A stretch of DNA of 64,000 nucleotides from an uncultured Anaerolineae bacterium (GTDB lineage Bacteria > Chloroflexota > Anaerolineae > Anaerolineales > Villigracilaceae). The position numbers were made by a program, and so were the translations under genes. The notes under the pieces were generated by a model. That model was not told where the DNA came from. It worked only from the letters and a program-made list of their open reading frames with translations, and ran no database searches. The stretch covers positions 62,001 to 126,000 of the forward strand of contig CAIQVH010000019.1 in NCBI GenBank assembly GCA_903875215.1. Direction: 5' to 3'. Of the stretch, positions 43,625-63,345 are shown one piece after another. The stretch's first letter is position 1. Each line of letters opens with the position of its first letter.

Positions 43625-43638
43625 GGGGAAAACTCCGA

Positions 43639-44658: not shown

Positions 44659-44669
44659 TTTGTTCCTTA

Positions 44670-45533: not shown

Positions 45534-46008
45534 GTTTCACCTCAATGATCTCAAAATGACGGATATCCTGAATGTTCCCTTGCATCTCTGCCGCGGGTTT
45601 GAAGACCGCCCGCACGCGCATGCCAACCTTGATGCGGGTTTCGTCCGTTTCGTTGATGATGTGGGAGAAAATATTATCCGCGCCATCCAGCTGGATGTAG
45701 CCATAGGTGTATGGAACCGGGCGCTCGAGGCCGGTGGCCGGGTCAATGAACGGGTAGTTGACAATCGTAAAGGCGATGATCGTGCCGGTCGGCGGGAGCG
45801 GCACCAGTTCGTCCAGCTCGCGGAAGCAGGTTCCGCAGACACGCCGCGGCGGGACGCGCACCTTGCCGCACTGCGGACAGCGAATCCCGACGAAGCGCTG
45901 GTGGGCGCGGATTTCCTGAAAGAACTTGCTGCCATAAATCCCAATTGACCATTCGTAGGGCATGCCCACGTCAGGAGAAGTCATCGTCAAAAGTTCGGGG
46001 GCGCTCAT
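45523..46008 (-). CDS. DUF35 OB-fold/zinc-ribbon acyl-CoA-associated protein (module 1)
   Basis: 161 aa. The rubredoxin-like zinc ribbon RCPQCGKVRVPPRRVCGTCF (about 43-62) is followed by the OB-fold (about 65-145) with YGYIQLDGADN and GMRVRAVF. DUF35 proteins pair with thiolase-superfamily enzymes (ChsH2 with Ltp2; BbsA with BbsB; the archaeal thiolase/HMG-CoA synthase complex) and supply part of the acyl-CoA channel. The start overlaps the thiolase-A stop by 4 bp and the stop overlaps the BKACE start by 11 bp. Confidence 0.9.
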   Translation of the reverse strand: MSAPELLTMTSPDVGMPYEWSIGIYGSKFFQEIRAHQRFVGIRCPQCGKVRVPPRRVCGTCFRELDELVPLPPTGTIIAFTIVNYPFIDPATGLERPVPYTYGYIQLDGADNIFSHIINETDETRIKVGMRVRAVFKPAAEMQGNIQDIRHFEIIEVKHGE

Positions 46009-47168
46009 GCAGGTTTCTCCTTCCCCAAAATAACCACGTCCGACCACCAGCAGCCGCCAAAGCCGGTCGCCAGCGCGGTTTTGACATCCGGCACCTGGCG
46101 CGCGCCGCCCTTGCCCATCACCTGGATGGCGGCCTCCGCCACGCGCAGCAAGGCCGTCGCGCCGATGCAGTTGGTGGACATCACTCCGCCCGATGGGTTG
46201 ACCGGGATTTTCCCGCCCATGTCGGTGTGACCGTCCCAGATAAACTGCGGGCCCTGGCCGGGGCCGCAAAAACCCAGGGATTCGATCCACTTCAGCCCGG
46301 CGTAGGAATAGGGCAGGTACAACTCGGCCACGTCGAAATCCTCGGCGGGATTCTTGATTCCGGCGGCGGCGTAGGCTTCCCGCGCGGCGCGCTCAAGTGA
46401 CTCCAGCCCGGTGCGCTGGTCGACATCCCCAAACCAGGAGTAGGTGTGCCGCACGGCGGTCGCTTTGATCCAGGCCGGGCGCGGTGCGAGTTTTTCGGCC
46501 ACGTCCTCGGCGGCGAAGACAACCGCCGCAGCGCCATCGGTGCGCGGGCAGATGTCGCCCAGTTTGATGGGATACGCCAGCATGGGCGAATCCAGTATCT
46601 CGTCCAGGGTGAGCGGTCGGCCGTGCATGTGGGCGTAGGGATTGTTCTGGGCGTGGGTGCGTTCGCGCAGCGCCACGCGGGCGGCGTCCCTTTGGGTGGC
46701 GCCGTATTTTTCCATGTAGGCCGAGGCCTCGGTCGCCAGGCTGGGGATCGCCCCGGAGTAGGAGTAGCGGTCCCAGATCGGGTCGCTGCAGGTCACGATC
46801 GCGCCGGTGGTGTCGCTTTCCGAGTTCTTTTCCCAGCCGATCGCCAGCACTTTGTCAAACATGCCCGAAGCGACGTGATAATAGGCGGCGATGGCCACCG
46901 ACGTGCCGGTCGTGCCGCCGGTGGTGACCTTCATGATCGGCTTCATCACGCCGCCCGAGCCTTCCACGCTCCAGGTGTCAACCGAGTTGATCGCTTCAAA
47001 GTGATCCATGTTGCCGATCACGACTGCGTCAATGTCGCGCATGGTCAACTCGCAATCGGCCAGGGCGCGCTGCACGGCTTCATGGATCATTTCGCGGCCG
47101 TTGACATCGCGCCGCTGGCTGCGGTGGTGGGTTTGGCCGGTTCCGATAATTGCAACTCGTCTCGCCAT
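46005..47168 (-). CDS. Thiolase-superfamily protein, type A, nucleophilic Cys replaced (module 1)
   Basis: 387 aa, SCP-x/lipid-transfer-type thiolase fold. IIGTGQTHHRS start, NPYAHMHG, and VNPSGGVMSTNCIGATAL near the C-terminus. Where biosynthetic and degradative thiolases have CxSG, this protein reads TTGGTTG (82-88), so no nucleophilic Cys; the usual GHP is TNC. A thiolytic Claisen reaction is therefore unlikely; aldol/retro-aldol chemistry, as in Ltp2, or a structural role fits better. Directly followed by a DUF35 gene and preceded by type B (2-bp gap). Module 2 has a paralogue at 59709-60881 with the same substitutions at the same positions. Confidence 0.85.
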   Translation of the reverse strand: MARRVAIIGTGQTHHRSQRRDVNGREMIHEAVQRALADCELTMRDIDAVVIGNMDHFEAINSVDTWSVEGSGGVMKPIMKVTTGGTTGTSVAIAAYYHVASGMFDKVLAIGWEKNSESDTTGAIVTCSDPIWDRYSYSGAIPSLATEASAYMEKYGATQRDAARVALRERTHAQNNPYAHMHGRPLTLDEILDSPMLAYPIKLGDICPRTDGAAAVVFAAEDVAEKLAPRPAWIKATAVRHTYSWFGDVDQRTGLESLERAAREAYAAAGIKNPAEDFDVAELYLPYSYAGLKWIESLGFCGPGQGPQFIWDGHTDMGGKIPVNPSGGVMSTNCIGATALLRVAEAAIQVMGKGGARQVPDVKTALATGFGGCWWSDVVILGKEKPA

Positions 47169-48410: not shown

Positions 48411-48875
48411 TCAAGTCAGGATTTCAAACCCATCAATATCCAAAATCCGTCCATTGCGCTCAATACCAAATTTAGCCCGCACGCGCACACCATTTTTCAA
48501 CCGATCCCATCCGTCTTTCAGGATGTGGACGAAACCCACATCCGCGCCATCCAGTTGGATGATGGCATAGGCAAAAGGGGTCGCAAGCGGCTGCAAAGGG
48601 TGGGCCTGATGGATGATAGTGAACGCTGTTACCACGCCTTCCGGGCCGACCTCCAGCCAATCATCCGTGCCGATATCGGCAAAACACGTCCCGCAGTTTT
48701 TGCGCGGCGGAACGTAGACCGTGCCACAGAGCGGACAGCGGTTCGCCAGGATTTTCTGCTCATCGCGCAGCGCCACCAAAAAGCGGCTGCCCGTCTCGCC
48801 GACTGACCAGGTATAGGGCATTTTGATCTGCCCTTTGAGCGTTAGCGCTTCGACTTCATCTCTCCAATCACTCAT
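48411..48875 (-). CDS. DUF35 OB-fold/zinc-ribbon protein (module 1, second copy)
   Basis: 154 aa. Zinc ribbon RCPLCGTVYVPPRKNCGTCF (about 41-60), then the OB-fold with FAYAIIQLDGADVGFVHIL and GVRVRAKFG. The N-terminal YTWSVGETGSRFLVALRDEQKIL is shared with the DUF35 protein at 58760-59239 (SRFFIALRDEQKIL), so those two are the closer paralogues. It is bracketed by repeat copies 2 and 3, i.e. it sits in a small isolated segment of the operon. Confidence 0.88.
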   Translation of the reverse strand: MSDWRDEVEALTLKGQIKMPYTWSVGETGSRFLVALRDEQKILANRCPLCGTVYVPPRKNCGTCFADIGTDDWLEVGPEGVVTAFTIIHQAHPLQPLATPFAYAIIQLDGADVGFVHILKDGWDRLKNGVRVRAKFGIERNGRILDIDGFEILT

Positions 48876-48889: not shown

Positions 48890-48967
48890 AAACACAAAGG
48901 GCACGAAGTACACAAAGGTAAGTAAAAAGGCGATTTTCCTTCGTGACCTTTGTGTACTGCGTGTTTA
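48890..48967. repeat. Intergenic CACAAAG/CTTTGTG repeat, copy 3
   Basis: AAACACAAAGGGCACGAAGTACACAAAGG...CCTTCGTGACCTTTGTG...GTGTTTA; about 78 bp, the longest copy. Overlaps the 3' end region of the thiolase gene at 48965. Confidence 0.8.
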
Positions 48968-50224
48968 GTCTCTTTCCACTTTCACCAAAATCGCTTCACC
49001 CTGCGAGAGACCGCCGCAAATGGCGGCCACGCCGGTTCCGCCGCCGCGCCGCATCAACTCGTACATCAGGGTCATGGTGATGCGCGCGCCGCTGGCGCCG
49101 ACCGGGTGCCCGATGGCGATCGCGCCGCCGTTGACGTTGGTTTTGGCCTGCAAAGCCTGGAATTTTTCCGGGTCGTTTTCAGCCAGCAGCTTGAGCGAGA
49201 CCAGAGTCACAGCGGCGAAAGCTTCGTTGATCTCGATCAAGTCCACGTCGGCGAGTGAGCGCTGATTCTTTTCCAGCAGAGTCTGGATGGTGCGGGCTGG
49301 AATTTCCGCCATATATTTGGGCACCCCGGCGGCGGCCTGACAGGCCTCGATCGTGGCGAGGGGCTTCAGGCCCAGGCTTTCGGCCCGGTCGCGCCGCATG
49401 ATGACCATGGCCGACGCGCCGGAATTCAGGCCGGGCGCGTTGCCCGCCGTCACGGTGGGACTGCCGTAGATTGGGCGCAGCTTCGCCATTTTCTCCAGCG
49501 AGAGATTATCCCGCGGCGGTTCGTCTTTTTCCAGCACGAGCGGCTCGCCTTTGCGTTGGGGAACCTCGACCGCCATCAACTCCTCGCCGATTTTGAATTT
49601 CCCCGCCTGATAAGCCTCGAACCAGCGCGCGTGACTGTTCAGCGCCCACGCATCCTGCATTTCACGCGTGACGCCATGCTCCACCGCCACTTCGCCGGAT
49701 TCGGTGGCTACGGGCGCAAACCCTTTGCGCCCGTAGCCCAATTCAAACAGGACATCTTCCAATTCGATGTGTCCCAGGCGGTTGCCCCAGCGGACTTTTT
49801 CGGCGCTGGCGATGAGCGGCGTGTTGCCCATGCTTTCCGCGCCCGCTGCGATGACCACGTCCGCGTCACCGGCTTTGATGGCGCGGAAGCCCTGTCGCAG
49901 GGCGGTCATCGATGAGCAGCAGGCACGGTCAATCGTCAGCGAGATGGTCTCGGGCGGGAATCCCGCCAGCAGGGTGATCTGTCGCGCCGGGACGTTGGTG
50001 TAGAGGGCGTATTCAGCCGGGATGCAGGTGCCGTAATAGACTTCGTCCACAGCTCCCGGTTCCAGGTTGATGCGGCGGATAACTTCCTTCAGCGCCAACA
50101 CGCCCAGGTCGATGCTGGATGTGGTTTTCAGCGCCCCGTCAAAATTGCCAAACGGCGTACGCACCGCGCTGACGATGACAACATCGTCCCGTGCAGAAAC
50201 CGGGATTACCTCGTGTGAGTCCAT
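48965..50224 (-). CDS. Acetyl-CoA acyltransferase (canonical thiolase)
   Basis: 419 aa with a full catalytic set: RACCSSMTA (nucleophile Cys103), NEAFAAV, NVNGGAIAIGHPVGASG (His) and ICGGLSQGEA (second Cys). It thiolytically cleaves 3-ketoacyl-CoA or condenses acyl-CoAs. This contrasts with the four Cys-less homologues around it. It lies 2 bp from the acyl-CoA synthetase gene. Specificity is unreadable. Confidence 0.95.
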   Translation of the reverse strand: MDSHEVIPVSARDDVVIVSAVRTPFGNFDGALKTTSSIDLGVLALKEVIRRINLEPGAVDEVYYGTCIPAEYALYTNVPARQITLLAGFPPETISLTIDRACCSSMTALRQGFRAIKAGDADVVIAAGAESMGNTPLIASAEKVRWGNRLGHIELEDVLFELGYGRKGFAPVATESGEVAVEHGVTREMQDAWALNSHARWFEAYQAGKFKIGEELMAVEVPQRKGEPLVLEKDEPPRDNLSLEKMAKLRPIYGSPTVTAGNAPGLNSGASAMVIMRRDRAESLGLKPLATIEACQAAAGVPKYMAEIPARTIQTLLEKNQRSLADVDLIEINEAFAAVTLVSLKLLAENDPEKFQALQAKTNVNGGAIAIGHPVGASGARITMTLMYELMRRGGGTGVAAICGGLSQGEAILVKVERD

Positions 50225-50226
50225 GG

Positions 50227-52074
50227 TTACTCCTGATACAGAGCCTCTACCTGCGCTCCATATTTTTTGTAGACTTCCTTACGTTTGACTTTTGCCGTCG
50301 GCGTGAGTTCTCCGGCTTCGATGGAAAAATCATGATCGAGAATGATGAATTTCTTAATGGTTTCGTAACTCGCCAGTTCCTGATTTTTCAACCTGACGAT
50401 GTCTTCAACTTCCGCCCGGATCTGGGACTCGGCCGCCAGTTGCTGATAACTGCCCGCCAGCCCAAGCTTTTCCGCCCGCGCTTTGAGTTCGTCTGCGTCG
50501 AGCGTGATGATCGCTGTCAGGTATTTTTTGCGGTCCCCGTAGACGACCACCTGGCTGATGAGCGGATCTTCCTTTAGCAGGCCTTCAATGTGGATGGGCG
50601 CCACGTTCTTGCCACCGGCTGTAATCAGGATATCCTTCATGCGGTCGGTGATGGTGATGTAGCCGTCCTCGTCAAGTCGGGCCACATCCCCCGAATGCAG
50701 CCAGCCGTCGCGGATGGCCTCGGCGGTTTCCTCGGGCTTGTTGTGATAGCGCAGCATCACATTCGGCCCCTTGACCAAAATCTCGCCTTCGGGTGAGAGA
50801 TCAAACTGGCATTGGTCGCCGGGCCAATCGTAATTCGGCCAGGGCTGTCCGACCGTTCCGATGCGGGTGTGACCGGGCAGGTTGGTCGTTGCGCCGCCTG
50901 CCTCGGTCATGCCGTATAGTTCGTAGACCGGCAGGCCAAGTTTCCAGAAGAATTCGTTAATCTCCTTCGAGAGCGGCGCGCCGCCGGTCACCATGAATTG
51001 CAGATGTCCGCCAAAGACTAGCTTCTTGAGATGCTCAAAATTGTTCTCTTCCAGTTCGTGCAATTGACGGCGATCATTCTCGGTGACGGCTTGCCCGGCG
51101 ATGTCGCCCGCCACCCGTACCCTGCCACCAATTTCCAGCGCTTTGTGCATGCCATCAGGGGTCAGGTGCGCCAGGATATCGGACTTGCTCCAGATGGTGG
51201 AGTAGACTTTTTCGAGCAGGCGCGGCACGACGCGGATGAAGCTCGGTTTGATAAAGCCGAAATCCTTGGAGACTTTATCCAAACTGCGGGCAAAAGCAAC
51301 GGTCACATCGCCGCGGTAGATGTCCAGCAGCGCACCGGCGAACTGCTCGAAGATGTGCGCCATCGGCAGAAAGGCCAGGTCAATCGAGCCGGGCTCGATC
51401 GGCAGCCATTTTGCGCCGGTGTATATGGTGTAGGTCATTGCCAGATGGTTATGAACCGCGCCTTTGGGGATGCCGGTTGTGCCGGAAGTGTAGATGTACG
51501 AGGCGATGTCGCTCAACTGCCCGGCGGCGACGGCGTCTTCAAAAGTGGCGGTCACCTGGCTGTTTTGAGCCGCGCCGAGCGCGATCAGGTCATCGAATGA
51601 CATGCAGAGCGGGTCCTCCCCCGGCTCGCATCCAATCGTGATGATCTTTTCCAGCTGCGGGCTGCTTTCTTTGCGCTTCAGGAACGCGTTGCGCTGCCAG
51701 GTTTCTTCCACGAACACGAAGCGGGAGTTCAGGTCATTCAGGATGTATTGCGCCTGTGACGCCACGTTGTTGGGGTAGATGCTGCCGGTGGCCGCGCCAA
51801 TGGAGAGCAGTCCCAGGTCTGCCAGGGCCCATTCCATGCGGGTGGCGGACATGATCGAGATGGGTTCCCCTTTTTTTGCGCCCAGCGCCAGCAGCCCCTG
51901 ACCGATGTTTTTGACCACTTCCCCGGCGCGGTTCCAACTCATCGTGCGGAATTTCCCTTTGCGGGTAAAGGGTGGAAAATCCCCTGGTTCATGATAGATG
52001 AACAGGGGTTTGTCGCCTTTTTGTTCCACGCGCTCCCAAAAGATTTGCGCGATGGTTTTCTCCGTATCCTTCAT
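50227..52074 (-). CDS. Long-chain acyl-CoA synthetase (AMP-forming)
   Basis: Activates a carboxylic acid to acyl-CoA. ANL-superfamily motifs: YTSGTTGIPKGAVHNH (P-loop, about 192-207), YGMTEAGG (about 388-395), WLHSGDVARLDEDGY and the catalytic C-terminal Lys region (TPTAKVKRKEVYKKY, near 595-608). The length of 615 aa fits the FAA1/FadD long-chain group. The position after the SCP2-like gene and before the canonical thiolase fits beta-oxidation of a hydrophobic acid. The acid itself cannot be read. Confidence 0.94.
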   Translation of the reverse strand: MKDTEKTIAQIFWERVEQKGDKPLFIYHEPGDFPPFTRKGKFRTMSWNRAGEVVKNIGQGLLALGAKKGEPISIMSATRMEWALADLGLLSIGAATGSIYPNNVASQAQYILNDLNSRFVFVEETWQRNAFLKRKESSPQLEKIITIGCEPGEDPLCMSFDDLIALGAAQNSQVTATFEDAVAAGQLSDIASYIYTSGTTGIPKGAVHNHLAMTYTIYTGAKWLPIEPGSIDLAFLPMAHIFEQFAGALLDIYRGDVTVAFARSLDKVSKDFGFIKPSFIRVVPRLLEKVYSTIWSKSDILAHLTPDGMHKALEIGGRVRVAGDIAGQAVTENDRRQLHELEENNFEHLKKLVFGGHLQFMVTGGAPLSKEINEFFWKLGLPVYELYGMTEAGGATTNLPGHTRIGTVGQPWPNYDWPGDQCQFDLSPEGEILVKGPNVMLRYHNKPEETAEAIRDGWLHSGDVARLDEDGYITITDRMKDILITAGGKNVAPIHIEGLLKEDPLISQVVVYGDRKKYLTAIITLDADELKARAEKLGLAGSYQQLAAESQIRAEVEDIVRLKNQELASYETIKKFIILDHDFSIEAGELTPTAKVKRKEVYKKYGAQVEALYQE

Positions 52075-52650: not shown

Positions 52651-52893
52651 TTAACCGCCTGCCGCCAGTGGAAGTATTCTGACGTTATCGCCAGCCTCCA
52701 ATACGGTTTCCAGCGTGGCCAGCTGGCGGTTGATGACCAAAATATGGGCGCGTTCATAGGTGATGCCGTAATAATCCAACAGGTCGGCGACTTTCGAGCC
52801 GGTCGCAAGCTCGACCTGCTCCATGCGGGCCGAGGGCGTGGTCTTGTAGGCGTTGCGCAGCAGGCCGGATAACCTGACCGTGACCGTGATCAT
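52651..52893 (-). CDS. MoaD/ThiS-family sulfur-carrier-like protein
   Basis: 80 aa beta-grasp protein ending in AAGG, the C-terminal Gly-Gly that is thiocarboxylated in MoaD/ThiS. VTVRLSGLLRNAY at the start and VLEAGDNVRILPLAAGG at the end. Start and stop are coupled to the AOR gene (4-bp overlap), as often seen for AOR operons, so it probably serves tungsten/molybdenum pterin cofactor assembly for the AOR. Confidence 0.87.
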   Translation of the reverse strand: MITVTVRLSGLLRNAYKTTPSARMEQVELATGSKVADLLDYYGITYERAHILVINRQLATLETVLEAGDNVRILPLAAGG

Positions 52894-54755
52894 GCCAGTC
52901 CCAGTTCCTTGAGCTTTTCGGGGGTGGGAATGCCGTCCGCGCTCCAGCCGCGCAGGGCGTAGTATTCATCCAGCATGAGTTGCAAGGGCACCACGTTGCC
53001 TTCCCCATGACCTTCCGGGTGGGGTTCCTCCGTCAGGCGTGGCGGCAGGTAATCGTCTTTGCGGGAAAATCCCAGCCGGGCGTTGAACATGCGCTCCAGG
53101 TTGAAAATCCGCTCGCCCATGCGGTAGGTCTCTTCGAGCGTGTATTTTTCTCCAATCACGGCGTTGTAGAAATCGGTGAAGACTTCCAGCCCGTTTTCGA
53201 GGAACATGTAGGGGAAAACGCACAGTCCCAAGGATTCGATGAAGGCGGTCTCATCCTGATTTTTCTTGACCAGAGCGGGTTTGCCCTCGGGCGTGAGCGG
53301 ATCCATCGGTTCGGGGATGCCGTTGATTTCGCGCTGGATGGTGTTGCCGGTGGTGTGGTTGCCGCCTTCCGGCGAGGTGGCGAACAGCAGTCCCTGCCCG
53401 ACCATGGCGCGCGGATGGTAGGCGGAGAAGCCCTGGCCCTTGGAACCCATGAAAACCTGCGGCGCGCCGTATTTTTCGGCCAGATAGCGGCCGCCGCGGC
53501 CGGCCTCCTTGCCGAATCCCTCTGCGTGGGCGATCATTTCGAGCAGGCGGATGCTGGCGTCAGCGTCGCGCCACTCCAGCGGGAAGCCAATTTCCTTTTC
53601 GGTGATCAGTCCCATCTCGTACAGTTCCATCAACGCGCTGAGAGTCACGCCCGCGTCGATGGTGTCCATGCCCATTTCGTTGCAGATGTAGTTCATCTTG
53701 GTGACGGCGTCGATATCGTTGATGAGCAGGTTCGAGCCGAAAGAGTACAGCGACTCGTATTCGGGCCCGTCGCCGTGCCCCTTATATTTCGAGTCGGAGG
53801 GCAGGCGCGTGTTGCGGGCGCAGTTCAGGGCGCAAGCCACGCAGCCTTTTTTGCGAATGATGGTGCGGTCATACATGGCCGCGCCGCTGATCAAGTCACC
53901 GTCTTCAAAAAAACCAGCCCTGAAATTCTGGGTGGGCATGGCGTTGACCGCGCCGAGCACGTCCACAAAGAGCGGGGTGCCAAATTCTTCGAAGACGAGC
54001 CCCAGGTCCATCGTTTTGATGTGATCCGCGATGACGTTGGAGCGTAGAACTTCTTCCGGCTCGGCAATCTTGATGCCCTGCGTGCCGCGCATAACGATGG
54101 CCTTGAGATTCTTGGAGCCCATCACCGCGCCGACGCCCGAGCGGGCGGCGAGACGATGCCCGTCGTTGGCAATCCCGGCAAAACGGACCAGGTTTTCTCC
54201 CGCCGGGCCGATGCAACTGGTTTTGGTTTCCGAACGCTGCCGCGGATTGACGGTCTGCTTGAGGGCGTGATCGGTTTCGACGCAGCTCAATCCCCAGTAG
54301 GGGGTGGCATCTTTCAGCTGGACTTTATCATCGTTGATTGACAGGTAGACTGGCGAAGCGGCTTTTCCGGTGAAGATGATAGCATCGTACCCGGCGGTTT
54401 TGAATGCCGCCGGGAAGTAGCCACCGGCATTCGAGGAGCAGACTGTGCCCGTCAGCGGGCTCTTGGTGATGACCGTGTTGCGGCCTGAGCTCAGTCCAAG
54501 CGTCATCGAGAGCGGGCCGTTGATGAAGATCAGCATGTTTTCCGGGCTGAGCGGGTCGCAGTGGATGTCCAGCTCGTCGTAGAGAATTTTGGTGCCAAGT
54601 CCGCGCGCGCCAATGTACATGCGCGCCAGCTCCGGGTTAAGCGCTTCGCGTTTGATCTCGCCAGTGGTGAGATTGACACGCAGGATGGTGCCCATCCAAC
54701 CGTACACTGCTGAGCTTGTCGAAGGAGCCAGCCCTGAGCTTGTCGAAGGGTTCAT
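52890..54755 (-). CDS. Aldehyde:ferredoxin oxidoreductase (AOR family)
   Basis: Tungsten/molybdenum-bispterin enzyme oxidising aldehydes to acids with ferredoxin. 621 aa. GWMGTILRVNLTTGEI, GPLSMTLGLSSGRNT, SNAGGYFPAAFKTAGYDAI, ARSGVGAVMGSKNLKAIV are all AOR landmarks; CVACALNCARN (about 305-315) is the cluster-binding CxxCxxxC, with the last Cys at C518-type LCVFPYMF. The start ATG 54755 overlaps the ferredoxin stop and has AGAGGTG upstream. A translated DNA repeat gives the odd N-terminal STSSGLAPSTSSA; an in-frame GTG at 54707 would remove it but has no ribosome site. Confidence 0.93.
   Translation of the reverse strand: MNPSTSSGLAPSTSSAVYGWMGTILRVNLTTGEIKREALNPELARMYIGARGLGTKILYDELDIHCDPLSPENMLIFINGPLSMTLGLSSGRNTVITKSPLTGTVCSSNAGGYFPAAFKTAGYDAIIFTGKAASPVYLSINDDKVQLKDATPYWGLSCVETDHALKQTVNPRQRSETKTSCIGPAGENLVRFAGIANDGHRLAARSGVGAVMGSKNLKAIVMRGTQGIKIAEPEEVLRSNVIADHIKTMDLGLVFEEFGTPLFVDVLGAVNAMPTQNFRAGFFEDGDLISGAAMYDRTIIRKKGCVACALNCARNTRLPSDSKYKGHGDGPEYESLYSFGSNLLINDIDAVTKMNYICNEMGMDTIDAGVTLSALMELYEMGLITEKEIGFPLEWRDADASIRLLEMIAHAEGFGKEAGRGGRYLAEKYGAPQVFMGSKGQGFSAYHPRAMVGQGLLFATSPEGGNHTTGNTIQREINGIPEPMDPLTPEGKPALVKKNQDETAFIESLGLCVFPYMFLENGLEVFTDFYNAVIGEKYTLEETYRMGERIFNLERMFNARLGFSRKDDYLPPRLTEEPHPEGHGEGNVVPLQLMLDEYYALRGWSADGIPTPEKLKELGLA
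54711..54750. repeat. Two copies of a CTTCGACAAGCTCAG-type repeat inside the AOR start
   Basis: TGAGCTTGTCGAAGG occurs at 54711-54725 and again at 54735-54749 (plus strand). It is the well-known dispersed bacterial CCTTCGACAAGCTCAGG repeat. Both copies are read through in frame as STSSG... at the N-terminus of the AOR. Confidence 0.8.
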
Positions 54756-55219
54756 AGCCGCACCTCTTTGTAGAGTTGAGCGATTTTTTCAAGATATTCT
54801 TCATCGGCTTCCGCCAGCGTCAGGGCCTGCGCTGCGCAGGCCTTGACGCACAGCGGATCTTCGCAGACTTCGCACTTGACCGCTTTTCCATCCACCAGGA
54901 AAACGGCCTGGTATTCGCAGGCCCGCACGCACTTGCCGCAGCCAATGCAGGTTTCTTCGTTGATTTCAACGATATTCGTCTGCGGGTTGCGGGAGATGCA
55001 GCTTTCCACGGGGCAGGCGACCATGCAGGACGCCGCTTGACATTGGAAGCAGACATGTGCGGCATACAGGGTATCGTCTTCGTTTTGCGCTACGCGGATG
55101 CGGGCAATCGATGGGCGCGCTTCCACCACGCCGCCTTTGCTAAAGGTCAGCGAGCAGTAGAGAGTGCAAAGATGGCAAAACGTGCAACGCTCTTGTTCGA
55201 AAACGATGATACGACTCAA
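54752..55219 (-). CDS. Polyferredoxin-like 4Fe-4S protein
   Basis: 155 aa, HycB/PorD-like. Cys motifs in order: CTFCHLCTLYC (about 12-22), CFQCQAASCMVACP (about 57-70), CIGCGKCVRACEY (about 91-103) and CEVCEDPLCVKAC (about 115-127). This is enough for four [4Fe-4S] clusters. Encoded directly before the AOR (4-bp overlap), it is the likely electron acceptor or relay of that enzyme. Confidence 0.9.
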   Translation of the reverse strand: MSRIIVFEQERCTFCHLCTLYCSLTFSKGGVVEARPSIARIRVAQNEDDTLYAAHVCFQCQAASCMVACPVESCISRNPQTNIVEINEETCIGCGKCVRACEYQAVFLVDGKAVKCEVCEDPLCVKACAAQALTLAEADEEYLEKIAQLYKEVRL

Positions 55220-55222
55220 GGT

Positions 55223-56440
55223 TCACACTCCCACGCAGTTTTTGATCAGGCGTTCAAATTCGGGTGTGCGGCTGACGGAAACGGGATTGAAGACCATCGT
55301 GCCATCTTCCATGCTTTGTTCAGTGAGTTGGTCGATGGTGGCGTCGTCGGTGGGGAAGCCATATTCCTTATAGGTATGCTTCACGCTGACTTTGGTATAG
55401 AGTTCCCTGAGCGCTTCGATGGCGCGGCGCCCCATCACTTCATCGGATGCGCCGTCATCCTTGACGCCCAACGCGCGCGCCACACTGGCATAGAGATGCG
55501 GAACTGCCTGCATGTTGTATTCCATCACATAGAGATTGGCGATGGCGACTGCCACACCGTGGTGGATGTGATGCAGAGCGCCCGCCGTGTGACCGATGCC
55601 ATGATCGGCGCCGGGCAGCGCAGTTTGGAAAGCAATGCCGCCCATGTTGGCCGCGATCAGCAGCTTGGAACGCGCTTCGAGTTCGTTGGAATTATCGTGA
55701 TAAGCGGCTTCGATGTTGTCTGCCACCATTTCAATCGCCCGCAGCGAAATCGCGCCTGAGATATCCTGCCGCTGGTCGGAGACGAAACTCCCGATGCAGT
55801 GCGTCATCGCATCCAGCGCGGTGCCCGCCACGATGTGCGCTGGCAGCGTGCGCGTACATTCAGGGTCAAGCACCGCCACGCGCGGGATAAATTTATAGTC
55901 GCCGCAGATGATTTTCTTTTTCTTCACCCGATCCATGATGACCGCGCCCCACGTCACTTCGGAGCCTGTGCCGCAAGTGGTGGGAATGCAGATGATGGGC
56001 TTGGTTTCCTTCTGCACCATGTAGAAACCTTCGTAGTCCTCGACCTGTCCGCCCTCAGATTCGATGACCGCTGCCATCTTCGTCACGTCAATGACCGAGC
56101 CGCCGCCCAGCGCGATCCAAAAATCAATTTTGGCCTCGCTGGCGATTTTGGCAATCTCGTAAACCTGCTCCTTGTCCGATTCGGGCAGGACGCTATCGAA
56201 GACCGCCACCACTTCACGCGACGAACCTTTGAGCGCGTCGAGCAGATAATCCAGCACGCCCGCGCTTTTGACGCCCGCGTCAGTGATGACCATGACTCTA
56301 TCCTTGCCCTCGAACTTCCAGTCCAGGTCCAGGTCATCAGGCAGATCCTTGACCTTCCCATTTCCGAATACGATGCGTGTTGGATTCCACCACTGGAATT
56401 CAGCACTGTGCACGGGCACATTACGATTGATCAGACCCAT
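55223..56440 (-). CDS. Iron-containing alcohol dehydrogenase (group III)
   Basis: 405 aa. NAD-binding region LGGGSVIDVTKMAA (GGGS, about 111-124); metal site in ALDAMTHCIGSFVS and GADHGIGHTAGALHHIHHGVAVAIANLYVMEYN (given in parts). Interconverts an alcohol and an aldehyde or ketone. I chose ATG 56440 because AAGGAGG lies six nt upstream; the longer frame to 56494 is less likely. Encoded between the ferredoxin/AOR and the acyl-CoA dehydrogenase, consistent with handling a carbonyl product made by the cluster. Confidence 0.92.
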   Translation of the reverse strand: MGLINRNVPVHSAEFQWWNPTRIVFGNGKVKDLPDDLDLDWKFEGKDRVMVITDAGVKSAGVLDYLLDALKGSSREVVAVFDSVLPESDKEQVYEIAKIASEAKIDFWIALGGGSVIDVTKMAAVIESEGGQVEDYEGFYMVQKETKPIICIPTTCGTGSEVTWGAVIMDRVKKKKIICGDYKFIPRVAVLDPECTRTLPAHIVAGTALDAMTHCIGSFVSDQRQDISGAISLRAIEMVADNIEAAYHDNSNELEARSKLLIAANMGGIAFQTALPGADHGIGHTAGALHHIHHGVAVAIANLYVMEYNMQAVPHLYASVARALGVKDDGASDEVMGRRAIEALRELYTKVSVKHTYKEYGFPTDDATIDQLTEQSMEDGTMVFNPVSVSRTPEFERLIKNCVGV

Positions 56441-58287: not shown

Positions 58288-58763
58288 GCTTGGGGCTCCT
58301 GAGTGGGTCTTCTTCCAGCCAGCGCGCGGGCGGTAAAAACGACAACGTCTTCGTTCCTTTGATTTTGAATCTTGTAGACAGCGGAAATCACGCCGCGCGC
58401 CTCATCTTTGATATCCAGCGCGGAGATTTCCATTGCACAGTGGATGGTATCGCCGATTTTGACGGGGTTGTAAAAGCGGACGCTGTCCATGCCGTAAAAG
58501 GCGATGAAGGATTTCGGCAGGTGGACGTGTTCTCCGAGCCGAAAAAGCAGCGCCGTGCCGATGGCGAGAGTCAACATGCCGTGCGCGATGCGCTCGCCAA
58601 ACGGCGTGGATTTGGCGTACTCAACGTCGGTGTGCAGCGGATGCCAGTCGCCCGTCAGCGACGCGAAGTTGACAATATCCGCTTCGGTGATGGTGCGGGC
58701 CGGGGAGACAAAGCGCTCGCCCAGGGTGTAATCCTCGAAATAGAGTTTTTCCACGCCGCTCAC
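58284..58763 (-). CDS. MaoC-like (R)-specific enoyl-CoA hydratase
   Basis: Hotdog-fold hydratase. LTGDWHPLHTDVEYAK (about 36-51) carries the catalytic Asp/His motif, and ERIAHGMLTLAIG is the following helix. 159 aa. It overlaps the upstream DUF35 gene and the downstream acyl-CoA dehydrogenase gene by 4 bp each. In ChsH1/ChsH2 a MaoC hydratase and DUF35 domain cooperate with the Ltp2 aldolase; here they are separate genes joined by ATGA. Confidence 0.92.
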   Translation of the reverse strand: MSGVEKLYFEDYTLGERFVSPARTITEADIVNFASLTGDWHPLHTDVEYAKSTPFGERIAHGMLTLAIGTALLFRLGEHVHLPKSFIAFYGMDSVRFYNPVKIGDTIHCAMEISALDIKDEARGVISAVYKIQNQRNEDVVVFTARALAGRRPTQEPQA

Positions 58764-59239
58764 TCCTCCGCTGGTTTGAAATATCGAATCGCCAGGATAT
58801 TCGCTGCGGGCGCTTCGGCAAAGACGGGCTGCATACGCATGCCGATTTTCAAATTTTCAAAATCGACCTCGCCAAGCAGGTGCGCCATGCCTGTGTCCGC
58901 GCCGTCGAGCTTGATGATGCCGTAGAGCACCGGCGCGGCCGGAACCGGTTGGGGCGGGGTGTAGTTCGGGCGGGTGAAGGTTTCCAGCGTGCCGAGCGGC
59001 CCGATTTCCAGCAGGTCACTCTCCGAAAGCTGGGAAAAACAGCGTCCGCAGGTGTTGCGCGGCGGCCAGTAGGTCAGGTTGCATTTCGGGCAGTGACTGC
59101 CCAGGATTTTTTGCTCGTCGCGCAGGGCAATGAAAAAGCGGCTGCCAACTCTCCCGGCGTAGTAGCGGCTGGAAGCGGTGATGTGCTGATCCACTTCGAA
59201 GTAGTCCCGGTTCTCGGACGGGGCGAAAATGTCGGTCAT
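58760..59239 (-). CDS. DUF35 OB-fold/zinc-ribbon protein (module 2)
   Basis: 159 aa. Zinc ribbon HCPKCNLTYWPPRNTCGRCF (about 49-68), OB-fold with YGIIKLDGADTGMAHL and GMRMQPVFA. The N-terminal SRFFIALRDEQKIL matches the DUF35 protein of module 1 at 48411. Both ends overlap neighbours by 4 bp (DUF35 upstream, MaoC downstream), so all are probably made in one ratio. Confidence 0.9.
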   Translation of the reverse strand: MTDIFAPSENRDYFEVDQHITASSRYYAGRVGSRFFIALRDEQKILGSHCPKCNLTYWPPRNTCGRCFSQLSESDLLEIGPLGTLETFTRPNYTPPQPVPAAPVLYGIIKLDGADTGMAHLLGEVDFENLKIGMRMQPVFAEAPAANILAIRYFKPAEE

Positions 59240-59709: not shown

Positions 59710-60881
59710 CAGCTGTCCTCCCACTTTTTCGAAAGCGCCGTCATGACGGTCCAATTGGTGCCGCCATAGGCCGTGGTCAGCGCCCAGTTGATATCCTTCG
59801 GAACCTGGTGCTCGCCCGCGTCGTTGCGGATTTGCAGGGCCGCTTCCCAGATGCGCAGCATGGCCGAGGCGCCGATGCAGTTGGTCGAAAGCACGCCGCC
59901 CGAAGGGTTGACCGGGATCGGTCCGTTGATTTCGGTCTGGCCTTCTTCGATCAGGTGGAAACCTTCGCCGCGTTTGCACAAGCCCAAATCCTCGTACCAG
60001 ACCAGTTCCGCCCAGGTGGCGGGTTCGTAGACTTCAAAGACATCGAAAAATGTGGCGGGATTTTCCACGCCCAATTTTTTGTAGAGTTTTTCGGCGCAGA
60101 CCCGCGAGAAAATCGGCCGGGTGTTGGTCACATCGCGCCAGTTGAGTTCGAACTGTTCGTTGTGCGCCGTCTCCGTCGCTCGGATCCAGACGGGCTTTTC
60201 GCAGCGTTCGCGGGCGGTTTTCTCGTCGGCCAGGATCATGGCGCAGGCGCCGTTGGAAGTCGGGCACATATCCAGCAGGCGGATGGGATAGGCCAGCATC
60301 TTTGAGTCGAACACGTCCTGGATGGTGATATCCAGCTTCAGGTGGGCGTACGGATTTTTGCGCGCATTCTGCCGCGCCTTGACCGCCACCATGGCCGAAT
60401 GTTCTTCGCGCGCGCCGAAGGCCTGCATGTACGAGGCGCCCATCATGGCGAAATAGCCCACCGCCGCGCCCGCCAGCGAGCGCCCGTACAGCGGATGCGC
60501 CACGCCGCTCAGGATGGCGCTGCTGTCGCCTTCTTCCTGTTTTTCAAAACCGATGCACAGCACCCGGTCGAACAGACCACTGGCGATGTGATGCGCGCCC
60601 GCCACAATCGTGGTCGCGCCGACCGTGCCGCCGGTGGTGATTTTCAGGCCGGGTTTGCCATACGCGCCGGTCGCATCCGCCAGCCAGCAGTCGGTCAGGT
60701 GACAGCCTTCGAAAAATTCCATGTTGCCCAACAGCACCGCGTCGATGTCATCCATCGTCATACGCCCATCCGCCAGCGCGGCCCGCACCGCTTCGTTGAC
60801 CATCTCGCCCTGGTTGACGTCATGCCGGCGCGAGGCGTGAACGGTCTGCCCGCCGCCGATGATTGCCACTTTTCTTTTCAT
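59709..60881 (-). CDS. Thiolase-superfamily protein, type A, nucleophilic Cys replaced (module 2)
   Basis: 390 aa. IIGGGQTVHASRRHDVN start, NPYAHLKLD, VNPSGGVLSTNCIGASAM. The nucleophile position reads TTGGTVG (82-88), the same place and nearly the same residues as the module 1 type A protein; GHP is again TNC. I chose ATG 60881 with GGAAGGTCAAG upstream; the frame to 60956 overlaps type B. Likely aldolase-type or structural partner of type B and DUF35, not a thiolase in the usual sense. Confidence 0.85.
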   Translation of the reverse strand: MKRKVAIIGGGQTVHASRRHDVNQGEMVNEAVRAALADGRMTMDDIDAVLLGNMEFFEGCHLTDCWLADATGAYGKPGLKITTGGTVGATTIVAGAHHIASGLFDRVLCIGFEKQEEGDSSAILSGVAHPLYGRSLAGAAVGYFAMMGASYMQAFGAREEHSAMVAVKARQNARKNPYAHLKLDITIQDVFDSKMLAYPIRLLDMCPTSNGACAMILADEKTARERCEKPVWIRATETAHNEQFELNWRDVTNTRPIFSRVCAEKLYKKLGVENPATFFDVFEVYEPATWAELVWYEDLGLCKRGEGFHLIEEGQTEINGPIPVNPSGGVLSTNCIGASAMLRIWEAALQIRNDAGEHQVPKDINWALTTAYGGTNWTVMTALSKKWEDS

Positions 60882-62062
60882 CTTGACCTTCCCGCGCTTG
60901 CGCTGAGACTGCGCGGTTCGCGTCCCAACACGATGACGCATTGATGCTGGCCGCAAAATCCGCTGTGACCTTGCGCCACGGCGATCTCCACATCTTTGAT
61001 TTGAACTTCCCCGGCCCGCCCCATGACCTGGTTGGCGGCTTCCGCCACCCGGTTCAGCCCCGCCACGTTGGCCGGGACTCCGCCCAGCAAGCCCCCCGAA
61101 GGATTGACCGGCAGTTCACCGGAACGGGCGGTCAATCCTTCGGCAGTGATGCAGCCTGCTTCCCCGCGTTTGCACAGGCCCAAACCTTCCAGCCAGAGCA
61201 GTTCCTGGTAGGAGAATTCATCCCCCAGTTCCACCAAATCCACCTGGCGGCGCGGATCGTTGATTCCGGCCATGCGGTAGGCCATTGCGGCGGCTTTTTC
61301 CAGCGCCATGCAATCCGCCAAATCCCTGTCGCCGAGATAGTGCGCGTCGTAACAGGAGCCGATGCCCAAAATCCAGGCGGGGTGGTCGGTGATTTGTTTG
61401 GCGCGTTCTTCGGATGCCATAATCAGGGCCACAGCGCCATCGCTATCGGGAGCAAGATCCAGCGCGCGCAGTGGGTCGGCGATCAGCGGCGCCGCCAGGA
61501 TTTCATCGAGCGACAAATCCCTGCCGTTGTGCATGACCGGGTTGAGTCGCGCGTTGGAGAGATTTTTCAGCACCACGCGCGCCACCTGTTCTTCAGTAAT
61601 TCCATACACTGACATGTAGCGCCGCGCCTGCAGCGCTGCCGCCGTGGTGAAATCAAATCCCAACATGCGCGTGTAGATCGGGTCGAAGGCGGTGTTGTTG
61701 ACGATGTTGCGATCCGTTTGTGACATCTTGGTGTGCGCCAGCAGCAGCGTGCAATCGAACTCGCCCGATAGAATGCCGATGGTCGCGTAATAGGCGGCGG
61801 TTGAGCCGTCCATCGCCATTTTTTCTTCGTTGCGCAAATGCCCGCCGATCACGTCGGTGATGCCGATGTCGGAGATGGTTTGCCCGTCCCAGATGTCGTG
61901 CGAACAACTGATGCTGTTATCGATGTCGCGCCCGATTTCAAGTCCCGTTTGCTGCAGGACTTGTTCGATGGCTTCATACGCCAGTTCGCCAACATTGACG
62001 TCGGCGCGCTTCGGGCTGAAACGAGTCTGGGCCACACCTACAATCGCCACACGGTCTGTCAT
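60878..62062 (-). CDS. Thiolase-superfamily protein, type B, nucleophilic Cys replaced (module 2)
   Basis: 394 aa. IVGVAQTRFSPKRADVN start, DIWDGQTISDIG, MDGSTAAYYA at the nucleophile position (Asp85 in place of Cys), VNPSGGLLGGVPANVAGL (His of GHP absent) and GFCGQHQCVIVLG near the C-terminus. A short Ser/Arg tail ends the protein. Overlaps the type A start by 4 bp. First member of the module, separated from the canonical thiolase by repeat copy 4. Confidence 0.84.
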   Translation of the reverse strand: MTDRVAIVGVAQTRFSPKRADVNVGELAYEAIEQVLQQTGLEIGRDIDNSISCSHDIWDGQTISDIGITDVIGGHLRNEEKMAMDGSTAAYYATIGILSGEFDCTLLLAHTKMSQTDRNIVNNTAFDPIYTRMLGFDFTTAAALQARRYMSVYGITEEQVARVVLKNLSNARLNPVMHNGRDLSLDEILAAPLIADPLRALDLAPDSDGAVALIMASEERAKQITDHPAWILGIGSCYDAHYLGDRDLADCMALEKAAAMAYRMAGINDPRRQVDLVELGDEFSYQELLWLEGLGLCKRGEAGCITAEGLTARSGELPVNPSGGLLGGVPANVAGLNRVAEAANQVMGRAGEVQIKDVEIAVAQGHSGFCGQHQCVIVLGREPRSLSASAGRSR

Positions 62063-62160: not shown

Positions 62161-63345
62161 TTACATTCTTTCAAAAATCGTCGCAATGCCCTGACCGCCG
62201 CCGATGCACAGGGTCGCAAGCCCATAGCGTCCGCCAGTTCGTTTCAGTTGATGCATGACCGCCAGCGCCAGCCGTCCGCCCGTCATGCCGTTGGGATGAC
62301 CGAAGGCAATCGCGCCGCCGTTGGGATTCCACTTTTCCGGGTCAACAGCGTGACCATCATTCGCCAAAATTTTCATCACTGCCAGAGTCTGCGAAGCAAA
62401 CGCTTCGTTGCATTCGACGACATCCATCTCCGCCAGCGTCAATCCTGTTTTCGCCAGAACCGCCTTGACCGCGTCCACCGGCGCGATGCCCATGTATTTC
62501 GGCTCGCGCGCCGTCACGGCGCAGCCGACAAAGCGTGCCAGCGGCTGATAGCCCAATTCGTCCGCTTTTTCTTTCGATATCAGCAAAACCGCCACGCCGC
62601 CATCGTTGAGTCCGGAGGACGAACCCGCCGTCACGGTGCCGTCTTTTTTGAAGGATGGACGCAGGCTGGCCAGTTTTTCGAGACTGGTGGCGCGTGGATG
62701 TTCATCCCGCGCGAAGATGAGCGCTTCGCCCTTCGGCTGCGGCACCGTTACTGGAACAATTTCCTCGCTGAAAAATCCCGCTTCGATGGCGGCGATGGCG
62801 CGTTCCTGGCTGCGCAGGCTGAACCGGTCCTGCTCTTCGCGCGTGATGTGGAACTCCTCCGCCAGCCCTTCGGCGATGGTCCCCATCGGGACGTCGGTAT
62901 CCGCATCCGGGCCGACTTCGCGCGTGATCCAGGCATTCGGAGTCAGCGAGAAGGGCGTTTTCTGGCGCTGCATCAGGTGCGGTTGAGTGCTCCAGCTTTC
63001 GCAGCCGCCTGCAATGTAGATATCCCCAAAATCGGCGCGGATGAAGGCTGCCGCGGTGTTGATGGTCTGCAGCGCGGAGCCGCACTGCCGCTCGACAGTC
63101 TGCGCGGGCACCGAGAGCGGAAATCCGGCCTTGAGCGCCGCCCAGCGCCCGATGTTGACCGCCGCGTTATTGGTGCAGGCGTGACCGATCAGAATGTCGT
63201 TCACCATCTCAGGGTTGAGTCTGGTTTTATCGAGCAAACCTTTCAGGGCAAAGGCCGCCAACTCCTCCGGGCGGAAGGACGATAAGGAGCCGCCCATCCG
63301 TCCAATGGCTGTCCGTGCGCCGTCAATGATGACCACTTCTTTCAT
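62161..63345 (-). CDS. Acetyl-CoA acyltransferase (canonical thiolase)
   Basis: 394 aa with the full set: VERQCGSALQTI (nucleophile Cys88), NEAFASQ, GGAIAFGHPNGMTGG (His) and LCIGGGQG (second Cys). Thiolytic step of beta-oxidation or its reverse. It is preceded by the enoyl-CoA hydratase gene 11 bp upstream. With the dehydrogenase and hydratase it gives an almost complete beta-oxidation set; a 3-hydroxyacyl-CoA dehydrogenase was not seen in the window. Confidence 0.95.
   Translation of the reverse strand: MKEVVIIDGARTAIGRMGGSLSSFRPEELAAFALKGLLDKTRLNPEMVNDILIGHACTNNAAVNIGRWAALKAGFPLSVPAQTVERQCGSALQTINTAAAFIRADFGDIYIAGGCESWSTQPHLMQRQKTPFSLTPNAWITREVGPDADTDVPMGTIAEGLAEEFHITREEQDRFSLRSQERAIAAIEAGFFSEEIVPVTVPQPKGEALIFARDEHPRATSLEKLASLRPSFKKDGTVTAGSSSGLNDGGVAVLLISKEKADELGYQPLARFVGCAVTAREPKYMGIAPVDAVKAVLAKTGLTLAEMDVVECNEAFASQTLAVMKILANDGHAVDPEKWNPNGGAIAFGHPNGMTGGRLALAVMHQLKRTGGRYGLATLCIGGGQGIATIFERM

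What the first reader, a model, noticed from the sequence alone, without database searches (positions are those of the whole stretch)
52651..56440. ADH, polyferredoxin, AOR and MoaD-like genes inside a beta-oxidation cluster
An aldehyde- or alcohol-handling set with tungsten/molybdenum cofactor supply sits between the acyl-CoA dehydrogenase and the acyl-CoA synthetase. A retro-aldol step yields a carbonyl. Oxidation to an acid by AOR and re-activation by the acyl-CoA synthetase would close a logical loop that also feeds ferredoxin. The link is inference.
Basis: inference. Interest (0 to 1): 0.52.

Follow-up and report, generated by a model that had tools for sequence, protein, structure and literature searches.

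The report
Transferable tungsten alcohol-to-acyl-CoA gene cassette
A six-gene set that probably turns a greasy alcohol into an aldehyde, then an acid, then an activated acid without oxygen has been joined as a unit to a large breakdown operon in an uncultured Anaerolineae bacterium; the chemistry is known, the combination looks new.

Summary
Two more genes complete the set: a 155-aa SCP2-type carrier (52144-52611) and the acyl-CoA synthetase.

In a Desulfobacterales MAG the same six genes stand together (56-71% identity; contig ends in the synthetase) behind a sigma-54 regulator gene and an IS110-type transposase gene. No close SCP2-thiolase relative was found in that MAG. In three Anaerolineae genomes the two are joined.

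Best reading: a transferable cassette for alcohol -> aldehyde -> acid -> acyl-CoA with ferredoxin reduction, working like GeoABC or sterol C26 oxidation. It cannot be the cassette's general role, since the cassette occurs apart from those genes. The substrate is unknown; weakly CrtI- and CrtC-like genes upstream hint at an isoprenoid.

Verdict: new variant of a known kind; reader partly supported.

The parts
55223..56440 (-). Iron-dependent alcohol dehydrogenase (Fe-ADH), first gene of the cassette
   Evidence: PF00465 E 2.7e-43; no NCBIfam equivalog over its cut-off; RBS before ATG at 56440; 71% identical in L009
54752..55219 (-). Polyferredoxin small subunit (WorS/AorA type), 16 Cys in four [4Fe-4S] motifs, TTG start
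   Evidence: best PDB matches 8c0z_C and 9mqx_E
52890..54755 (-). Tungsten-type aldehyde:ferredoxin oxidoreductase large subunit (WorL)
   Evidence: catalytic and cluster residues kept; clade with L007-L009, support 100/100
52651..52893 (-). MoaD/ThiS-like protein ending in GG (WorX-like), presumed tungstopterin maturation
   Evidence: PF02597 E 2.1e-8; WorX described in PMC13328260
52144..52611 (-).
   Evidence: no Pfam hit itself; profile A1 hits L066:9062-9502 at E 2.1e-7 and that protein is PF02036 SCP2 at 2.3e-12; Foldseek top 5 are SCP2 structures, best E 6e-3, on a low-confidence model
50227..52074 (-). AMP-forming acyl-CoA synthetase, last gene of the cassette
   Evidence: PF00501 E 2.2e-58; 65% identical over 255 aa in L009 up to the contig end
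56491..58287 (-). Acyl-CoA dehydrogenase (598 aa)
   Evidence: PF12806, PF00441
58284..58763 (-). MaoC-type enoyl-CoA hydratase
   Evidence: PF01575 8.8e-31
58760..59239 (-). DUF35 (ChsH2-type zinc ribbon/OB) partner
   Evidence: PF01796, PF12172
59236..59703 (-). DUF35 partner; true start not determined
   Evidence: PF01796, PF12172
59709..60881 (-). SCP2-thiolase-like protein, Gly at the thiolase nucleophile site, YEPA motif: putative aldolase
   Evidence: start ATG 60881 as in the L067 copy, the longer ORF runs to 60956
60878..62062 (-). SCP2-thiolase-like protein, Gly at the nucleophile site, GDEF motif: probable non-catalytic partner
62161..63345 (-). Conventional thiolase (TIGR01930 over its cut-off)
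63357..64000 (-). Enoyl-CoA hydratase; continues past the window, where 3-hydroxyacyl-CoA dehydrogenase, CrtI-like flavoprotein, CrtC/AttH-like protein and MerR regulator follow (L040)
   Evidence: MerR
48965..50224 (-). Second conventional thiolase (TIGR01930 over its cut-off)
48411..48875 (-). DUF35 partner
   Evidence: PF01796 1.4e-11, PF12172 1.6e-7; orthologues 45-82% in L007, L008, L080-L082, L084-L091
47171..48310 (-). SCP2-thiolase-like protein, Gly at the nucleophile site, YDAF motif
46005..47168 (-). SCP2-thiolase-like protein, Gly at the nucleophile site, YLPY motif
45523..45948 (-). DUF35 partner; true start not determined
   Evidence: PF01796 1.6e-16, PF12172 8.2e-10
44670..45533 (-). 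BKACE-type beta-keto acid cleavage enzyme
   Evidence: PF05853 8.7e-95; NF052387 1.6e-81, below its cut-off
42842..44757 (-). Two-subunit CoA transferase/hydrolase (43639-44757 and 42842-43642)
   Evidence: PF01144 for both; A subunit nearest 1poi_A glutaconate CoA-transferase 6.8e-42, then 5mzw and 6co6

Best explanation
The feature is a self-contained, horizontally moving six-gene cassette: Fe-ADH, WorS, WorL, WorX-like MoaD, SCP2-type carrier, acyl-CoA synthetase. Most likely the Fe-ADH oxidises a hydrophobic (probably isoprenoid, branched or alicyclic) primary alcohol to its aldehyde with NAD+. The tungsten AOR oxidises the aldehyde to the acid, passing electrons through its own polyferredoxin to ferredoxin; the MoaD-like protein helps mature the cofactor. 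The SCP2-type protein holds the poorly soluble intermediate, and the synthetase makes the acyl-CoA. In these Anaerolineae the cassette has been joined to an operon whose core is also found in the phylum of the Desulfobacterales relative; its acyl-CoA dehydrogenase, hydratase and Cys-less thiolase-fold/DUF35 complexes then break the acyl-CoA down, probably by retro-aldol cleavage. Shown by sequence: gene content, order, residues, the separate occurrences and the common AOR clade. Inferred: direction of transfer and of catalysis, substrate, carrier role and retro-aldol chemistry.
For: Same six genes in the same order in L009 (Desulfobacterales) at 71/57/66/56/64/65% identity, with none of the window's beta-oxidation genes in the 8 kb before them; they follow a sigma-54/PAS/GAF activator gene and an IS110-type transposase gene. 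L009's genome G303 has no relative of SCP2-thiolase 46005-47168 at E<=1e-60. AORs of window, L007, L008 and L009 are one clade (100/100), on a branch of 0.98, apart from 39 other rows; in 301 genomes of the own order the nearest other AOR is 49% identical (at most four candidates per genome were scored). Core cluster without ADH, polyferredoxin, AOR, MoaD or carrier in G797 and G905. Catalytic residues complete. SCP2 assignment by a two-step profile match. Precedents seen as passages: Desku_2951 AOR and Desku_2952 ADH are abundant on methanol and ethanol (PMC5770442); GeoA, GeoB and GeoC are proposed to take perillyl alcohol to the aldehyde, acid and CoA ester after a phytoene-dehydrogenase-family limonene dehydrogenase (PMC4109377); sterol C26 alcohol is proposed to pass through ADH, aldehyde dehydrogenase and CoA ligase (PMC11061730). 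The operon carries a CrtI-family-like flavoprotein and a CrtC-like protein.
Against: No substrate is shown. AORs and Fe-ADHs are broad and reversible, so direction is inferred from the synthetase and the catabolic neighbours. L009's contig ends inside the synthetase, so what follows there is unknown, and G303's completeness is not reported. Only one non-Anaerolineae example of the cassette was found. The CrtI-like and CrtC-like assignments are weak (73 bits against a cut-off of 238; PF07143 24.4 bits against 22.5), and nothing shows that the flavoprotein makes an alcohol; PMC11061730 says its sterol desaturase has no similarity to phytoene desaturases. A GeoABC-like route would not need tungsten.
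Confidence: 0.55

Rival explanations
1. One reading: a retro-aldol step by the SCP2-thiolase/DUF35 complexes releases an aldehyde, AOR oxidises it to the acid, and the synthetase re-activates it for the next round, as in the bile-acid Sal -> aldehyde route. The ADH would then be an accessory valve.
For: The four SCP2-thiolase-like proteins and G301's extra copy have Gly at the nucleophile column (5 of 5; 35 of 35 readable rows of 37 in other loci), as stated for CtSal, and Tyr where thiolases have His in 59709, 46005 and 47171 (PMC12329534 passages). A MaoC hydratase and acyl-CoA dehydrogenase precede. AOR and synthetase are in the same operon in 3 of 3 Anaerolineae genomes. In G797 the nearest AOR (C116, 43%) has two weak synthetase-like matches (24 and 28%) within about 5 kb, and the core in G797 has a synthetase-like match (26-51% over parts) beside its end, so a dispersed loop there is not excluded.
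Against: The cassette exists in G303 without close SCP2-thiolase relatives, and the core exists in G797 and G905 without it; no ADH, MoaD or carrier match lies by their nearest AORs (43% and 39%) in the stretches fetched. The loop does not need the ADH that leads the cassette. If the cleaved carbon is tertiary the product is a ketone, which an AOR cannot oxidise (established chemistry). The Cys or His of the known aldolase motifs is Pro or Ala here.
Confidence: 0.25
2. The cassette runs in reverse as an electron sink: acids are reduced by low-potential ferredoxin to aldehydes and by the ADH to alcohols.
For: AORs can reduce acids (PMC6365974 passages; PMC9295118 and PMC10816221, abstract starts in a search listing).
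Against: A co-conserved acyl-CoA synthetase and carrier, and a catabolic operon, fit oxidation better; acid reduction is endergonic with the donors discussed under standard conditions (PMC6365974 passage).
Confidence: 0.1
3. General aldehyde detoxification: the AOR removes reactive aldehydes formed by side reactions of the pathway, with no fixed place in it.
For: Detoxification is the role given for several Class I and IV WORs (PMC13328260).
Against: A dedicated ADH, carrier and synthetase travel with this AOR across phyla, while the five other AFOR-domain loci of G000 have no match to the cassette's ADH, ferredoxin, MoaD, carrier or synthetase at E<=1e-3 in the 20-kb stretches fetched.
Confidence: 0.1

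Closest known systems
Class II tungsten oxidoreductases (WorL + WorS, with WorX) in the scheme of PMC13328260
   Same: Large subunit with the listed active-site residues, small subunit with four [4Fe-4S] motifs, ThiS-like WorX gene, no FAD/NAD subunit recognised in the operon
   Different: Solved relatives include PfAOR (1aor) and, by recall, AaAOR (8c0z), both clade 87 in the paper; the two characterised Class II enzymes are in clades 40 and 20. Joined here with ADH, carrier and synthetase
Aromatoleum AOR operon aorABCDE (PMC6365974)
   Same: AorA-like four-cluster subunit, AorB-like large subunit, MoaD-like gene
   Different: No AorC-like FAD subunit recognised, so ferredoxin rather than NAD+ is the likely acceptor; one MoaD-like gene, not two
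Desulfotomaculum kuznetsovii Desku_2952 ADH + Desku_2951 AOR (PMC5770442)
   Same: ADH and AOR with neighbouring locus tags, proposed for alcohol oxidation on proteomic evidence
   Different: Substrates methanol and ethanol; no synthetase or carrier mentioned in the passages seen
GeoA-GeoB-GeoC of Castellaniella defragrans (PMC4109377) and the sterol C26 route of Sterolibacterium (PMC11061730)
   Same: Works like it: alcohol to aldehyde to acid to CoA ester, on isoprenoid compounds, oxygen-independent, beside a phytoene-dehydrogenase-type flavoprotein in the former
   Different: They use an aldehyde dehydrogenase; here a tungsten-type AOR. No sequence homology was tested
Steroid side-chain aldolases Sal/Shy and Ltp2/ChsH2 (PMC12329534)
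   Same: Thiolase fold + DUF35 partner, Gly for the nucleophilic Cys, Tyr in the motif (three of four proteins)
   Different: YEPA, YLPY and YDAF instead of YDCY or YDHF; arranged as two paralogues plus two DUF35 genes

Membership tests
Class II WOR (WorL+WorS) | Large subunit with both AFOR domains and conserved Thr/Glu/Tyr/His and four cluster Cys | tested here: met
Class II WOR (WorL+WorS) | Small subunit with four [4Fe-4S] clusters encoded next to WorL | tested here: met
   four Cys motifs, gene overlap of 4 bp
Class II WOR (WorL+WorS) | No FAD/NAD (WorN) or bifurcating (WorABC) subunits | tested here: met
   none recognised among the operon genes scanned; a subunit encoded elsewhere is not excluded
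Class II WOR (WorL+WorS) | Tungsten in the active site, ferredoxin as acceptor | not testable with these tools
   needs protein
Iron-containing alcohol dehydrogenase | Fe-ADH N- and C-terminal domains | tested here: met
   PF00465 2.7e-43, PF25137 8.8e-35; no NCBIfam equivalog over its cut-off
SCP2 sterol-carrier domain (155-aa protein) | Direct match to PF02036 over the cut-off | tested here: not met
   0 Pfam families for the window protein; L009 copy E 0.042, below cut-off
SCP2 sterol-carrier domain (155-aa protein) | Homology to a bona fide SCP2 protein through a profile | tested here: met
   A1 hits L066:9062-9502 at E 2.1e-7; that protein scores PF02036 2.3e-12
SCP2 sterol-carrier domain (155-aa protein) | SCP2 fold | tested here: inconclusive
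   top 5 of 336 Foldseek matches are SCP2, best E 6e-3, but mean pLDDT is 50.6
Thiolase (SCP2-thiolase) | Nucleophilic Cys in the N-terminal half | tested here: not met
   Gly in all four SCP2-thiolase-like proteins of the window, though they match thiolase domains
Sal/Ltp2 side-chain aldolase | Gly at the thiolase Cys and Tyr at the catalytic His position | tested here: met
   Gly 4 of 4; Tyr 3 of 4 (60878 has GDEF, not met)
Sal/Ltp2 side-chain aldolase | Second catalytic residue: Cys of YDCY, or Tyr344 of Ltp2 | tested here: inconclusive
   the Cys/His of YDCY/YDHF is Pro or Ala; the Tyr344 column was not checked
Sal/Ltp2 side-chain aldolase | DUF35 partner encoded beside it | tested here: met
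   two DUF35 genes beside 59709/60878 and two around 46005/47171

The most novel reading that the evidence does not exclude
These Anaerolineae and their Desulfobacterota relatives run an undescribed oxygen-independent pathway for an isoprenoid-type lipid. A CrtI/CrtC-like pair functionalises the hydrocarbon, a tungsten-AOR cassette saves the aldehyde-to-acid electrons as reduced ferredoxin instead of losing them to NAD+, and paired Cys-less thiolase-fold/DUF35 complexes cleave the branched chain by retro-aldol. The cassette is a portable part that upgrades the pathway from acids to alcohols or hydrocarbons.
Probability: 0.25. Interest if true: 0.7.

Novelty: new variant of a known kind. Interest (0 to 1): 0.46.

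Why it matters
If right, it gives a gene signature for anaerobes that oxidise hydrophobic alcohols with tungsten and gain reduced ferredoxin from the step, and it puts that ability in Anaerolineae, a group known largely from uncultured genomes. It shows a catabolic operon built from two blocks that also occur apart. It also points to a family of Cys-less thiolase-fold/DUF35 complexes, with relatives in 27 of 390 sampled genomes of the phylum of the Desulfobacterales MAG, whose chemistry I have not seen tested.

Tried and rejected
Naphthalene thn operon as the identity of the surrounding cluster: rejected, because the gene list in PMC12016498 (passages) has AtuA-like lyases, and the word DUF35 does not occur in that text. 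Methanogenic limonene pathway (PMC12583861, passages): a glycine-radical route; 'alcohol dehydrogenase' and 'aldehyde ferredoxin' do not occur in the text, so not this. PMC11748557 on salt-marsh Anaerolineae (passages): terpene synthesis only, no help. AOR_Aa-type NAD-linked enzyme: not supported, as no FAD subunit was recognised. Vertical inheritance within the order: not supported, since in 301 genomes the next best AOR is 48-49% identical, and both same-genus genomes lack a close AOR (best 44%) and any SCP2-thiolase relative at E<=1e-100.

Structure of the 155-aa protein: the single-sequence model was useless (pLDDT 39.8); a four-row alignment raised it only to 50.6. Promoter/terminator scan: counts within the spread of the shuffles. 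A first tblastn run returned nothing, because the loci are stored in shared files; it was repeated. Literature: among the papers listed by searches, none has a title or abstract start that describes this gene set. These listings are capped (for example 12 of 52, 12 of 21, 10 of 52), and the library is open-access papers only. CtmAB and GeoABC sequences were not compared.

Rows and limits: genome searches score only a few best candidates per genome (4, 9), so weaker copies could be missed. In one search hits under 50% identity were dropped before printing; 2 of 37 printed rows had no readable nucleophile column, and one of those (L083 with 47171) is a cross-hit to a paralogue. L084 has LEPF and L081 has CDAF, against the usual motifs. 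In one search several long branches meet and 10 of 39 inner branches are open, so only the four-member clade is used. In G889 the core is broken by contig ends at the very place where the cassette would sit, so it is not counted as lacking it. Names from recall: AaAOR for 8c0z, LutABC, crtC-crtD.

Full report
WHAT IS THERE. The window is part of contig C19 (62001-126000) of a 3.77-Mb, 38-contig genome, 98.64% complete. Its closest named relatives at this locus are two uncultured Anaerolineae MAGs. The ADH most likely starts at 56440, behind an aaaggagg sequence. Genes overlap or are separated by at most 100 bp from the enoyl-CoA hydratase at the window's end to the CoA transferase at 42842. 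Beyond the window the same run continues with 3-hydroxyacyl-CoA dehydrogenase, a CrtI-family-like flavoprotein, a CrtC/AttH-like protein and a MerR-type regulator. In all this is about 26 genes in about 25 kb.

THE ENZYMES. The AOR keeps the active-site residues that PMC13328260 lists for aldehyde-oxidising members (T260, E334, Y446, H467 for PfAOR T243, E313, Y427, H448) and the four cluster cysteines; the polyferredoxin has four [4Fe-4S] motifs. Best solved relatives are 9mqx_D, 1aor, 9g7j and 8c0z for the large subunit and 8c0z_C and 9mqx_E for the small one. With a small subunit, a ThiS-like gene and no FAD/NAD subunit recognised in the operon, it fits Class II of that scheme (WorL, WorS, WorX), which uses ferredoxin. 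The paper was seen as outline with abstract, section 4 part 1, section 9 and passages.

A SIXTH GENE. Between MoaD and the acyl-CoA synthetase lies a 155-aa protein with no direct Pfam match. A profile of four copies (A1) finds L066:9062-9502 at E 2.1e-7, and that protein is a clear SCP2 domain (PF02036, 2.3e-12). Foldseek on a low-confidence model lists SCP2 structures in its first five places (best E 6e-3). It is probably a hydrophobic-ligand carrier; that role is inference.

THE CASSETTE STANDS ALONE. In a Desulfobacterales MAG (L009) the order Fe-ADH, polyferredoxin, AOR, MoaD, 155-aa protein, synthetase recurs at 71, 57, 66, 56, 64 and 65% identity. It lies behind a 667-aa sigma-54 activator gene with PAS and GAF domains and, before that on the other strand, an IS110-type transposase gene (PF02371 1.9e-13). 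No beta-oxidation gene of the window matches in the 8 kb before it. The contig ends inside the synthetase. The genome (G303) has no relative of SCP2-thiolase 46005-47168 at E<=1e-60. The AORs of window, L007, L008 and L009 form one clade (100/100) on a branch of 0.98, apart from 39 other rows. Among 301 genomes of the own order the nearest other AOR is 48-49% identical; the 155-aa protein was found in 1 of 400 genomes of the phylum sample at E<=1e-5 (the window's own); among 85 genomes of the order of G303 only G303 had an AOR match at E<=1e-170.

THE SURROUNDING CLUSTER ALSO STANDS ALONE. SCP2-thiolase 46005-47168 has a relative at E<=1e-100 in 1 of 301 genomes of the own order (its own) but in 27 of 390 genomes of G303's phylum, up to 81% identity. 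I read 12 stretches from 10 of these 27 genomes. In G797 and G905 nearly the whole core is present (3-hydroxyacyl-CoA dehydrogenase, thiolase, two SCP2-thiolase-like and two DUF35 genes, CrtC/AttH-like, second thiolase, DUF35, two more SCP2-thiolase-like, DUF35; enoyl-CoA hydratase and the CrtI-like gene matched in G905 only), at 44-81% identity. Within it there is no match to ADH, polyferredoxin, AOR, MoaD, carrier or synthetase; a distant synthetase-like match (26 and 51% over parts) and a marginal ferredoxin-like one (E 0.001) lie beyond its end in G797. The CrtC/AttH(-CrtI) genes occupy the place where the Anaerolineae have MaoC, acyl-CoA dehydrogenase and the cassette. G889 has both halves on two contigs that end at that place, so it does not count either way. 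The nearest AORs elsewhere in G797 and G905 are 43% and 39% identical; in the stretches fetched they have no ADH, MoaD or carrier match, but a polyferredoxin match in G905 (34%) and two weak synthetase-like matches in G797 (24 and 28%). In the Anaerolineae genomes G000, G301 and G302 cassette and core are joined (in G302 the operon is cut by contig ends within acyl-CoA dehydrogenase and ADH). G301 has one more SCP2-thiolase-like plus DUF35 pair, and G302 one more synthetase.

THE RETRO-ALDOL PREMISE. PMC12329534 (passages) states that SCP-2 thiolases use a nucleophilic Cys, which is Gly in the aldolase CtSal, and that the catalytic motif changes from HDCF (thiolase) to YDCY (CtSal) or YDHF (Ltp2). 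The PDB alignment places Gly110 of the 59709 protein on the Cys of SCP2-thiolase 6hsj. In the window's four SCP2-thiolase-like proteins and G301's extra one that column is Gly in 5 of 5, and in other loci in 35 of 35 readable rows of 37. In those other loci the motif is YEPA (5 of 5 rows), YLPY or YMPY (13 of 13), YDAF or YDAY (12 of 14, the others LEPF and a paralogue cross-hit) and, in the fourth protein, GDEF or CDAF (5 of 5). These proteins are therefore unlikely to be thiolases. They look like aldolases with a partner subunit, but the Cys or His of the known motifs is Pro or Ala, and Ltp2's Tyr344 column was not checked.

HOW IT MOST LIKELY WORKS. Because an ADH leads the cassette and a synthetase ends it in both phyla, the simplest reading is alcohol -> aldehyde -> acid -> acyl-CoA, with ferredoxin reduced at the AOR step. 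Precedents are the ADH/AOR pair of Desulfotomaculum kuznetsovii (PMC5770442, passages), the proposed GeoA/GeoB/GeoC steps in Castellaniella (PMC4109377, passages) and the proposed ADH, aldehyde dehydrogenase and CoA-ligase steps of anaerobic sterol C26 oxidation (PMC11061730, passages). A substrate of isoprenoid type is suggested only by the CrtI-like and CrtC-like genes (weak matches), the SCP2-type protein and the aldolase-like complexes.

LIMITS. All evidence is sequence. One non-Anaerolineae cassette was found; G303's completeness is not reported and its contig ends in the synthetase. Direction of transfer, direction of catalysis and substrate are inferred.

Noticed in passing
L080-L082, L084-L091: A conserved quartet (two Cys-less SCP2-thiolase-like paralogues flanked by two DUF35 genes) recurs in genomes of the phylum of G303; SCP2-thiolase relatives in 27 of 390 genomes. 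It looks like an untested family of heteromeric aldolase-like enzymes.
   Followed up: partly
L040:3111-5746 (beyond the window end): Adjacent CrtI-like flavoprotein and CrtC/AttH-like lipocalin genes head the catabolic operon, resembling a crtC-crtD pair (recalled) in a degradation setting.
   Followed up: partly
window 42842-45533: BKACE enzyme next to a two-subunit CoA transferase related to glutaconate CoA-transferase and to 6co6; whether it transfers CoA or opens a ring was not tested.
   Followed up: no
window 36468-39342: LUD-domain, LUD+ferredoxin and cysteine-rich (CCG) proteins in a row, resembling a lactate-utilisation LutABC set (name recalled).
   Followed up: no
window 39531-42600: Class II aldolase, FGGY sugar kinase and DeoR regulator form a separate small sugar unit after a 241-bp gap from the operon.
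   Followed up: no
L046:1314-3224: G301 carries an additional SCP2-thiolase-like plus DUF35 pair (HDAY motif, Gly at the nucleophile site) between enoyl-CoA hydratase and thiolase; in G000 the thiolase follows the hydratase directly.
   Followed up: partly
L009:4807-5895: IS110-type transposase gene beside the regulator of the stand-alone cassette, a possible vehicle of its movement.
   Followed up: partly
G797, G303, G301, G302: These genomes hold 12, 10, 8 and 8 matches to the window AOR (E<=1e-40 for G797; E<=1e-30 for the others), so such anaerobes are rich in unassigned AORs.
   Followed up: no
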